Shown in pieces: positions 56,467-62,723 of a DNA stretch of 64,000 nucleotides (within the stretch, counting starts at the first letter, position 1; each line of letters opens with the position of its first letter). The stretch covers positions 133,383 to 197,382 of the forward strand of contig PDUO01000072.1 in NCBI GenBank assembly GCA_003008705.1, written 5' to 3'. The position numbers and the translations under genes are program-made. This DNA is from Pezicula radicicola. Lineage: Eukaryota; Ascomycota; Leotiomycetes; Helotiales; Dermateaceae. The notes below the pieces were generated by a model. The model ran no database searches. It saw only the letters and a list, made by a program, of their open reading frames with translations, and was not told the DNA's origin.

Positions 56467-59400
56467 ATGTTCTTAATTTCGGGGCCACAGGCTCCAAAGG
56501 GAGTGGGGAAAGGGGTAAGGTCCTTGATTTCACTTACTCATAGCCAGCAAGGAATCTGGATGGAGTATTGTATAAACCCTCAGAGTATTCAATACAACTT
56601 GACCCTCGGGTGTTCTCTTCCTGGAGATGAGATGAATACATCTCTATCAAAAATTATGAATGGTGAGTGCCTAACATTTGTGAGGCCTAAGTATTGACCT
56701 TACTAGCAATCAAAATCCTGACGCGACGATATTGTGCCCTTCGGTCAAAAATTGTCGTTGACGGCACAGCACATTTTCAAGAACATGACCCAGAAATTGT
56801 GTATCCTCATATACAAGTCATCTCCAGCCCTCCTGGCAGAGTAGATACATCTGTTGTGACTGATGCTCTTCACAGACCCTTTGATCTGGCTAGAGAATAT
56901 GCGGTGAAATGGTACATTATACAGGACACGAAGCAATTCCAGGTATATCTTGTTGCACACCATATAGTACTTGATGGAACGAGCATGAGTATACTATCAC
57001 AAGAGTTGCTGGAGCTGTATGAAGGCAGTATTGCAGAAGCCCCTCGATCAGTAGACCTCAGCTACGCCCATCTTGCAGAGGTACGCCACGTGCATCTATA
57101 TGCAACATTTGACTCACCTCTTGCAGCAAGCCTGGCTTCGTAGCCAATCGTTCAAAGACGCTGAAACCATCTGTCTCTCCCAAATTACTAAAGCATGTCC
57201 TACAGTCTGGGCTGTCAGTAAGTCTCATCATGACTTGAATACATCAACGCAGGCGTTCCGATGTATTGATACGTGGACAAGATACACCAAAGAGGTTCGT
57301 GAACTCCCCAGCCGTTGAAATATTCTGATCATAGATAGGACCTGATGACATGGAGCAAAGCATACGGGACATCCTGGTTCCGCGTCGCTGTCAGCCTTGT
57401 AGGTATCCTACTGCGATCATTTACGGAGCCTCGGCATGGCGAGGACCAGACTGTCGCTGTAGCGTTTGCAGGGCGACCAAAAGAATTCCACAACACACCA
57501 GGCCACTTTGCCAACGCGCTGCCCATCAAGATTCCCATCTGGGAGCATTTACTCAGTAAAAGTGAGGACCGAAAGACGTTGCACGCCCTAGTCCAGTCTG
57601 TCTCGCAGAACATCAGCAAGGTCAAGCGGGCAGAGCGACTCTCGCTGGCCAACTTGGCTCGCAGTGCACGAACTCATGGCATCGAATACCATGCGCCAAA
57701 GGTGGCTATCAGCTACTCACCAAAGCTAGCAGATGATCGGTGTCGATTGTTTCCTGTCGAGGGCTGCTGGGATCTGTTTTTCGTCTTCCTCGAAGATGAT
57801 GCGGGCACTGAACTAGGGGTAGGCACGCAAAATCTGGCAACTATTGGATGCTAACAAACCAGGTTATCTACGATCCGACTATCTTTACAAATGCAGCAAT
57901 TACGATGATGAAGGCTTCCTTCGAATGCCTCACGGCGATGAGCAATTCGACAGCGCCAGTACCTCTCACCATGATACCTGGATTACCAAAGTGTCCTTCT
58001 CTTCCCAGAGATCCGACCCTTGCCGTCCATGAGATGTTTCAGCATCATGCGCTTACCAGCCCAGAAAGAATTGCGCTGTCTTGTGCTGAGACGGGTCAGA
58101 GTATGACCTACAACGAGTTGAATCTTAATACTACCGCTGAGGCTCATAGTAAGTACCCCAGAGCTTGCAAGACCTGACTGACACGCGCAGTCCTGATATC
58201 CCATGGTGTTGTTCGGGAGTCCACCGTGATCCTGCATCTAGAACACGGGTTTCAGATCATAGAATGGATCCTAGCGACTATGAAATCGGGAGGTGCCTTT
58301 GTCTATGTTGATCCAAAGCTTCCAGAGTCTCGCAAGCGGTTAATACTCGACCAGACCAAGCCATCAGTTGTGGTGACTGACATATCAGATGGCCGGAGTC
58401 AATGGCTGGATGGCTTCCAAGGAGCACGTGTCATCCACATTGCAGCATCGGAGCTCCTCTTCTCAGCGGAGCCACTACCTAAGACTGGGGCTCAAGATCT
58501 TGCATATATCATCTACACCTCTGGCAGTACAGGTATGTGTCATTTACACTCGAGATGTTGACTAACGCCCTCAGGTGAACCAAAAGGCGTGATGATCGAG
58601 CATGGGCATCTTGCTAGCTTTGTCAGAGCAAGCAATGCCATCTACCAAGTTGGCTATGGCTCAAGAGTATTGCAGTTTGCATCTTTCACCTTTGACGCAT
58701 CTATCCTAGAGTGGTCGAATGCACTAACGAGCGGAGCAACTCTGTGCTTCGCTTCAACTCCGCAAGGCCTCATCGATGACTACCTTGCCGATGTGATTGA
58801 CATGAATTCGATCACATTCATGCAGACCACGCCAACGGCATTGGCAACAATTTCCGACAGTCGAGATGTTGCGTCTCTACAACGTATTTCGCTGGGAGGA
58901 GAAGAAGTCCCAGAAGCAATTATCAAAACATGGCAGCGGCGAGCGGACGTTGTTAATTCATATGGCCCAACTGAAATAACGTAATTCAAACCCCCATTTT
59001 AGGGAGCTGGGGCTGATAATTTCAGTGTTGCTGCTTCGTACAGGCAGTATTTGAAAGGTTCTAAAATTCCTGATACAGTTTCTGTAGGAATGCCAGCTCC
59101 TGGCACCCAGATTTACATCTGCGATACAAACTTCTCCCGCATACTCTCCCCTGGACAAGAGGGAGAAGTCTGTATTGCGGGCGTTCAAGTTGGTAGAGGG
59201 TAACTTATGTGAACTCCAAATAGTGAATCTGACTAAATGGTTCAGGTATCGGGCTCTACCTGAGATTACAGCTAAGAAGTATGCTGTCCATCCTACTCTC
59301 AAAGTGCGTATGTATCGAACTGGAGATCTTGGACGAATTGATGGTAATGGTGAACTTGTAATTCTCGGCAGAATTGATCGTGAGGTCAAAGTCCGAGGTA

Positions 59401-62400: not shown

Positions 62401-62723
62401 CTCATAGCTCCGAGTTGCAATGGGACGAAGTAGAGCCCTTTGGGGTCACAGGGCGCAGCTTGCGAAATGAGAAGATGGAAGACCCCCTCGCAGCTGTCCA
62501 GGAGGAGAATGTTCTTGCGCTTCATCAATTCAAGGCGCCTAAGCAGCCGCTGGATATCATGGCTCTGTATCTGCAGTCATCTGCTCGCGAGTTAGGGAAG
62601 GATGAGAAAGAGAGATGGAAGAAGCTACTTCCACTAATGAGGTGGGAGGTCGTAGAGGGAGGGCATATGGATGTTTGGAAAGGTAAAAATACGGAGAAGA
62701 TTATTCAGATGTTAGGAGAGTAG
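56467..62723 (+). CDS. TAS1-like NRPS-KS hybrid synthetase with extra PCP and thioesterase
   Basis: Fifteen exons, phases consistent, about 1,880 aa. Exons: 56467-56662, 56707-57080, 57127-57294, 57339-57818, 57863-58148, 58191-58532, 58575-58980, 59026-59199, 59246-59397, 59440-59908, 59953-60774, 60817-61119, 61168-61300, 61344-61822, 61865-62723. Domains in order: condensation (HHIVLDG); adenylation (IIYTSGSTGEPKG, NSYGPTEIT, YRTGD, GRIDREVKVRG, SGKIDH); PCP (FFDNGGHS, Ser formed across an intron); ketosynthase (active Cys in TNCASGT, LHGSGTPIGD, and KGNLGN with Asn for the usual His); a second carrier (LAGLDSQKFIRL); thioesterase (PPAGGS, FGASFGG, GGHMDVWKGK). No AT, KR or DH is present. 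C-A-PCP-KS with this KS triad is the tenuazonic-acid synthetase type, a mycotoxin family enzyme; TAS1 ends at the KS. An additional upstream exon cannot be excluded. Amino-acid specificity is not predicted. Confidence 0.9.

What the first reader, a model, noticed from the sequence alone, without database searches (positions are those of the whole stretch)
56467..62723. TAS1-type NRPS-KS hybrid extended by a second carrier domain and a thioesterase
Seen: an unbroken 15-exon frame with C-A-PCP-KS followed by a GLDS-type carrier site and an alpha/beta-hydrolase with GASFG and GGH motifs. Known: in the tenuazonic-acid synthetase TAS1 the KS is the last domain and itself performs ring closure and release. 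Inference: here the KS product may be passed to the second carrier and released by the thioesterase, giving hydrolysis, esterification or a different ring; alternatively the TE edits or the KS elongates. With no AT domain, any extender unit must be supplied in trans or as an acyl-CoA/acetoacetyl unit through the C domain. I do not know of a described enzyme with this exact order.
Basis: partly seen in the sequence, partly recalled or inferred. Interest (0 to 1): 0.9.

Follow-up and report, generated by a model that had tools for sequence, protein, structure and literature searches.

The report
Six-domain fungal NRPS-KS with thioesterase
This fungal gene encodes one large enzyme that joins an amino acid to a small acyl unit, probably closes a ring, and carries its own extra carrier and release domain; the same domain order turns up in many other fungi under unnamed database entries.

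Summary
A 15-exon plus-strand gene (56467-62723; 1880 aa in my best splicing) reads C-A-PCP-KS-PCP-TE. KS and second PCP are joined inside one uninterrupted exon, and the TE keeps a Ser-Asp-His triad. A Cudoniella acicularis protein has the same order, 73% identical over the KS-TE part searched. The interpretation needs turning round. The KS has TAS1's unusual Cys-His-Asn triad but groups apart from TAS1, in a sister clade whose content fits sub-clades B-D of Yun 2015. There, PCP-TE tails occur in Ascomycota and Basidiomycota: 21 of 58 database proteins examined, 12 of them with a hydrolase named by Pfam, 9 by alignment only. Tail and KS trees share 10 of 16 splits. An old tail lost repeatedly is favoured over addition to a TAS1, but a separate gain in Hypocreales is not excluded. 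Best mechanism (inferred): the KS closes the ring without releasing it; PCP2 receives it and the TE hydrolyses it, most likely giving a taslactam-like gamma-lactam acid. I found no product for any member with this order, and no text describing it in the open-access library searched. New variant of a known kind.

The parts
56467..62723 (+). whole gene, 15 exons, 1880 aa, C-A-PCP-KS-PCP-TE
   Evidence: P0001 73% identical over the 798-residue KS-TE region searched, and 52-88% identical exon by exon over all 15 exons
56527..57674 (+). condensation (C) domain, HHIVLDG motif (second His codon 56961); interrupted by introns
   Evidence: PF00668 96.3 bits, protein 21-358; motif site
58037..59673 (+). 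adenylation (A) domain; pocket letters DALQSGSVAK by recalled GrsA numbering; interrupted by introns
   Evidence: PF00501 234.5 bits, protein 465-810, plus PF13193 885-937 below its cut-off
59826..60065 (+). first carrier domain (PCP1), GGHSL, Ser codon begins 59907 and is split by an intron
   Evidence: PF00550 best stretch 989-1053
60182..61556 (+). ketosynthase (KS), Cys codon 60674, His 61172, Asn 61292 (Cys-His-Asn triad as in TAS1)
   Evidence: PF00109 and PF02801; PDB 6kog TAS1 KS E 2.9e-69
61671..61920 (+). second carrier domain (PCP2), GLDS, Ser codon 61764; end approximate
   Evidence: PF00550 has two stretches; Ser kept in 21 of 21 database proteins with a TE-length tail
61971..62720 (+). 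thioesterase (TE), Ser codon 62190, Asp 62280, His 62664; P-P-A-G-G-S-C stretch near its start
61344..61822 (+). exon 14: one open exon that carries the KS end, the linker and the PCP2 serine
53167..54941 (-). divergent neighbour: probable major facilitator transporter gene, exons not modelled
   Evidence: three open frames with PF07690 matches, each below the family cut-off

Best explanation
An intact-looking fungal NRPS-KS synthetase whose KS is a ring-closing domain, followed by its own carrier and thioesterase for release. Shown by sequence: the six domains in one frame, the catalytic residues, and similar PCP-TE tails in other fungi. Inferred steps: (1) A loads an aliphatic amino acid on PCP1. 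(2) C joins it to an acyl-CoA, probably acetoacetyl-CoA as in TAS1. (3) The N-acyl-aminoacyl chain moves to the KS cysteine, and the His/Asn pair drives carbon-carbon ring closure. (4) Unlike the TAS1 Dieckmann reaction, which expels the thiol and so releases itself, closure here is of a kind that leaves the thioester in place, most likely an aldol giving a hydroxylated gamma-lactam as in the taslactam/salinosporamide class. (5) The cyclic acyl group passes to PCP2 and the TE hydrolyses it (or forms a lactone or ester).
For: Order and residues. KS triad Cys-His-Asn, reported for TAS1 and its homologues (passages of PMC4640141). The KS is in the non-TAS1 clade, whose content fits Yun's sub-clades B-D. 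[quoted passage not shown] the title of the original, in its reference list, calls taslactams gamma-lactams analogous to actinomycete proteasome inhibitors. SalC, a KS, is an aldolase/beta-lactone synthase (passage of PMC9582728). PCP2 Ser and TE Ser/Asp/His are kept in 21 of 21 database proteins with a TE-length tail. Tail and KS trees of 19 proteins agree in 10 of 16 splits against at most 3 in 5000 relabelled trees, so KS and tail have evolved together at least within groups.
Against: No product is known for this gene. TaTAS1's sequence and full domain order were not available, so its place in the window's clade is not tested; that it belongs to Yun's sub-clade D is recalled. The review speaks of a terminal KS domain in those swaps, and relatives that keep PCP2 without a TE, or lack both, exist, so an aldol-type KS may not need a TE. 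No proteasome subunit gene, a possible self-resistance clue, lies on this contig (24 matches, none on C122), though the contig is cut just past the gene. The window's KS alone reads GPSQHPL just before the catalytic Cys (1 of 64 rows tallied), so its activity may differ.
Confidence: 0.42

Rival explanations
1. TAS1-like Dieckmann closure: the KS makes and releases a tetramic acid by itself, and PCP2-TE is an editing or salvage unit that clears stalled or misprimed chains.
For: Same Cys-His-Asn triad as TAS1; TAS1 KS needs no downstream domain; members without TE or without PCP2-TE exist.
Against: KS lies outside the TAS1 pair and the two TAS1-pair rows differ from it at 25 columns that are at least 90% conserved in the 59 other family rows. 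A tail used only for editing need not have kept PCP2 Ser and the TE triad in 21 of 21 proteins of two phyla.
Confidence: 0.2
2. Elongation: PCP2 is loaded with malonyl in trans, the KS condenses the aminoacyl chain with it, and the TE closes or hydrolyses the beta-keto thioester, giving a ring by lactam formation in the manner reported for mutanocyclin.
For: KS followed by a carrier is the order of an elongation module; AT-less modules exist (among the PDB hits); a lactam route to tetramates is reported in bacteria (passages of PMC10161427).
Against: No AT family in the protein; the second His of ordinary KSs is Asn; TAS1 uses acetoacetyl-CoA and not acetyl-CoA with malonyl-CoA (passage). Type III PKSs with Cys-His-Asn do elongate, so this is not excluded.
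Confidence: 0.15
3. The KS passes the ring on and the TE does not hydrolyse but forms a beta-lactone, ester or dimer.
For: Nearest solved TE folds include NocB, and obafluorin synthetase ObiF1 is among them, whose TEs act in strained-ring formation (recalled).
Against: Fold ranks among TEs are nearly tied and do not tell the reaction; TE active-site residue is Ser, whereas ObiF1's is Cys (recalled).
Confidence: 0.15
4. The fused tail is a gene-model artefact: two neighbouring genes joined by wrong splicing.
For: No RNA data were available.
Against: KS end and PCP2 Ser are in one exon; similar fusions in 21 of 58 database proteins from two phyla, 20 of the 21 with the A domain annotated.
Confidence: 0.03

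Closest known systems
TAS1, tenuazonic acid synthetase of Pyricularia oryzae (KS structure 6kog)
   Same: C-A-PCP-KS core; KS Cys-His-Asn triad; HGSGTP and GSNKGNxGNT stretches shared.
   Different: TAS1 ends in its KS; its KS groups with an Alternaria protein apart from the window's clade.
Taslactam synthases (TaTAS1 and kin; Motoyama 2023, not held, seen only as cited in PMC11026467)
   Same: NRPS-PKS with C-A didomain and KS that uses acetoacetyl-CoA plus an amino acid; that they belong to Yun's sub-clade D, the clade matched here by content, is recalled.
   Different: Full domain order not seen by me; the review speaks of a terminal KS.
Unnamed database protein P0001, Cudoniella acicularis (G7Y89_g7005)
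   Same: Same six domains in the same order, 73% identity over the KS-TE region searched, every exon aligned.
   Different: Uncharacterised; keeps GPNIT before the KS Cys.
SalC, stand-alone KS of salinosporamide
   Same: A KS fold used for ring closure instead of chain growth (PDB 7s2x hit E 9e-52).
   Different: Bacterial, stand-alone, makes a beta-lactone; not in an NRPS chain.
SwnK and FnsA type fungal NRPS-PKSs
   Same: NRPS part before a KS; FnsA ends in ACP-TE.
   Different: They carry AT and reducing domains and no C domain in the orders given.

Membership tests
Fungal TAS1-homologue NRPS-KS family (Yun 2015) | C-A-PCP-KS core in one protein | tested here: met
Fungal TAS1-homologue NRPS-KS family (Yun 2015) | KS triad Cys-His-Asn | tested here: met
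Fungal TAS1-homologue NRPS-KS family (Yun 2015) | KS in a clade apart from type I PKS KSs | tested here: met
   100/99 with two bacterial outgroup rows, 99 with six
TAS1 sub-clade A (tenuazonic acid synthetases) | KS is the last domain | tested here: not met
   PCP2-TE follows
TAS1 sub-clade A (tenuazonic acid synthetases) | KS groups with TAS1 and the Alternaria homologue | tested here: not met
   branch 99/95; long branches noted by the program
TAS1 sub-clade D / taslactam synthases | KS in the ascomycete clade with Metarhizium, Beauveria and Fusarium homologues | tested here: inconclusive
   window is inside that clade by content, but no published sub-clade D sequence was identified by name
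TAS1 sub-clade D / taslactam synthases | product is a gamma-lactam from amino acid plus acetoacetyl-CoA | not testable with these tools
   needs expression and chemistry
PF00975 thioesterase | profile score over cut-off, Ser-Asp-His triad, alpha/beta-hydrolase fold | tested here: met
SwnK-type NRPS-PKS | AT and KR after the KS | tested here: not met
   no such Pfam family listed at E 0.1

The most novel reading that the evidence does not exclude
The C-A-PCP-KS-PCP-TE form is the old form of a Dikarya-wide family of one-protein lactam synthases: its KS is an aldol-type cyclase that keeps the thioester, PCP2 is a post-cyclisation carrier, and the TE sets whether a free acid, ester or beta-lactone leaves. 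KS-terminal relatives of this clade arose by repeated loss of the release unit.
Probability: 0.25. Interest if true: 0.7.

Novelty: new variant of a known kind. Interest (0 to 1): 0.5.

Why it matters
It would explain how a KS that closes rings without expelling the thiol unloads its product, and it gives a sequence rule (tail kept or lost) to test against chemistry across fungi. It also warns that database entries named TAS1 outside sub-clade A need not make tenuazonic acid: two proteins bearing that name, Metarhizium anisopliae P0026 and Lasiodiplodia theobromae P0015, sit in the other clade and carry a second carrier serine.

Tried and rejected
First exon draft put a false intron at 57218-57252 and broke the frame; dropped. 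Exon 12 and 13 acceptors were then chosen by homology.

The adenylation pocket (DALQSGSVAK) differs little across the 59 rows and does not by itself name the amino acid; positions follow GrsA numbering from memory.

A self-resistance clue (proteasome subunit nearby) was sought and not found on this contig; the contig end limits this. Contig sequence past the window does not exist. Two scans of 20 neighbouring open frames named no obvious pathway gene next to the synthetase apart from the transporter; only frames that I picked were scanned, not spliced genes.

Rows dropped: one search lists the best 120 of 1211 matches and I kept 58, leaving out bacterial-type PKS and hybrid proteins by their Pfam lists, so 21 of 58 is no census. 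Of the 120 listed (of 410) I added nine new family-like ones. Before the tree I left out 17 of 69 family rows (near-copies, short, partial or aberrant models) and 4 of 6 outgroup rows. The one-clade test there (p-AU 7.8e-6) was run after an earlier tree had been seen, so the group was not named blind. Some KS-only labels are truncated gene models: P0067 (Gloeophyllum, partial) had a KS at zero distance from P0016, which has the TE, and P0065 is identical in KS to P0049, so losses are overcounted. P0053 has the tail but no A domain in its Pfam list; P0122 lacks the TE His at the aligned place.

Check of the tails against my reading: in 9 of the 21 (P0003, P0006, P0007, P0009, P0010, P0017, P0019, P0022, P0066) no hydrolase family reaches its Pfam cut-off; six of the nine show weak matches and three none, and a second carrier stretch is counted in four of the nine. 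A profile of the window, Cudoniella and basidiomycete tails does not separate the ten hypocrealean tails (40-79 bits) from 17 bacterial NRPS/PKS thioesterase ends (31-75 bits). The reverse profile does: 26-75 bits for the nine other tails, at most 21 for the controls. Shared origin of the hypocrealean tail with the others is therefore supported but not proved, and I lowered the novel case from 0.30 to 0.25.

NCBIfam on five relatives gave only general NRPS/PKS models in the rows shown. Papers not held: Motoyama 2023, Bauman 2022, Yun 2020. The FnsA paper surveyed 502 fungal NRPS-PKSs and colours their domain types in a figure that I could not see, so this order may be drawn there. The only paper found by order strings is on Pseudomonas and I saw only its listing.

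Full report
What is there. The gene at 56467-62723 (+) has 15 exons, 14 GT-AG introns of 42-48 nt and encodes 1880 aa (1884 aa with the first choice of two acceptors). Pfam finds C, A, PCP, KS, PCP and TE in that order. KS and PCP2 are joined in one exon (61344-61822); the TE lies wholly in the last exon. The closest protein found, P0001 of Cudoniella acicularis, matches 100% of the KS-PCP-TE query at 73% identity, and all 15 exons at 52-88%. The gene is single copy; the next match in the 61-Mb genome is 31% identical.

The family. I examined 58 of the 120 proteins listed, with the window. Tails after the KS fall in three kinds: almost none, a carrier alone (its Ser often kept), or carrier plus TE. 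The last kind makes 21 of 58 and spans Cudoniella, Drechmeria, Neonectria, Cylindrodendrum, Hirsutella, Ilyonectria, Beauveria and Akanthomyces among Ascomycota, and Athelia, Mycena, Favolaschia and Crepidotus among Basidiomycota, with one metagenome protein. All 21 keep PCP2 Ser and TE Ser, Asp and His at the aligned places. In 12 of them the database's own Pfam list names a thioesterase or other alpha/beta hydrolase; in the other 9, eight of them ascomycete, none reaches a cut-off in my scan, six show weak matches and three none, so there the TE rests on the alignment. One of the 21, P0053, has no A domain listed. A second search with a profile added nine family-like proteins, two with a TE-length tail, one of these without the His; one Mycena citricolor protein has a cytochrome P450 in place of the tail.

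History. On a KS tree of 54 rows, TAS1 and an Alternaria protein form one pair (100/100), and the other 50 family rows form a clade (99/95). Within it are two groups of basidiomycete proteins and one of ascomycete proteins (with a few unnamed metagenome rows), which fits sub-clades B, C and D as described by Yun 2015. The window sits with Cudoniella in the ascomycete group (100/99). Proteins with a TE do not form one clade (p-AU 7.8e-6; at least ten changes on the tree). The tails can be aligned, with a G-G-S-C stretch in most (G-G-S in 15 of 19 by my count), and the tail tree shares 10 of 16 splits with the KS tree of the same 19 proteins, against at most 3 in 5000 relabellings. This shows joint descent within the groups; between groups it says little. 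There, a profile of the ten hypocrealean tails scores all nine other tails above all 17 bacterial thioesterase controls, but the reverse profile does not set the hypocrealean tails apart from the controls. One old tail lost several times is the simpler reading; a separate gain in Hypocreales, or transfer between fungi, is not excluded, and truncated gene models inflate the number of losses.

Mechanism. TAS1 joins isoleucine and acetoacetyl-CoA, and its KS releases the product by Dieckmann closure. That reaction expels the thiol, so nothing downstream is needed. A KS that closes the ring by an aldol step keeps the thioester and needs a release step. TaTAS1 makes taslactam A from leucine and acetoacetyl-CoA, and KS swaps with TAS1 gave no detectable product (passage of PMC11026467); SalC is a KS that acts as aldolase/beta-lactone synthase. 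I therefore favour KS closure, transfer to PCP2 and TE release. This is inference; the lactam structure is a guess from related enzymes. Rivals are self-release with an editing TE, elongation with malonyl in trans, and lactone or ester formation by the TE.

A caution on this copy: just before the KS cysteine it reads GPSQHPL, alone among 64 rows tallied; nearly all other family rows read GPN-x-T (one reads GPSVT, TAS1 GPVVT). It is in frame and its effect is unknown.

Surroundings. A probable transporter gene of the major facilitator family lies divergently at about 53.2-54.9 kb. Other recognised genes are farther off. The contig ends 1.3 kb after the stop codon in AT-rich DNA. No proteasome subunit gene was found on this contig.

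What is in print. Papers were seen as passages only: PMC4640141, PMC8788799, PMC11026467, PMC8403587, PMC8582187, PMC9582728, PMC9876896, PMC10161427, PMC9606254. Searches listed no paper in whose title, abstract or passages I saw this domain order, but I did not read whole texts, most subscription papers are not held, and one survey figure could not be seen.

Noticed in passing
window 60649-60670: Just before the KS active Cys the window reads GPSQHPLNTNC where nearly all other family rows read GPN-x-T; the DNA there holds CTCTCAACACC twice in a row. In frame; effect unknown.
   Followed up: partly
P0014, P0018, P0024-P0026, P0040, P0044, P0057 (tails of about 88-130 aa): Relatives with a second carrier but no TE keep the carrier Ser, which hints at a use for PCP2 without a fused TE.
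   Followed up: no
P0129, Mycena citricolor: C-A-PCP-KS fused to a cytochrome P450 instead of PCP-TE.
   Followed up: no
window 8001-14000 and 62750-64000: AT-rich blocks (GC 0.15-0.18 in the first; the second seen), RIP-like by look; the second is the contig end.
   Followed up: no
window about 50690-50712: A short run of N inside a GAAAA-type simple repeat (X runs in the translated frames).
   Followed up: no
window 17176-17571 (-): Open frame that reads like a retroelement polymerase by eye; not searched.
   Followed up: no
own genome contig C83: Very long NRPS open frames, up to 13087 aa without a stop, with many condensation domains.
   Followed up: no
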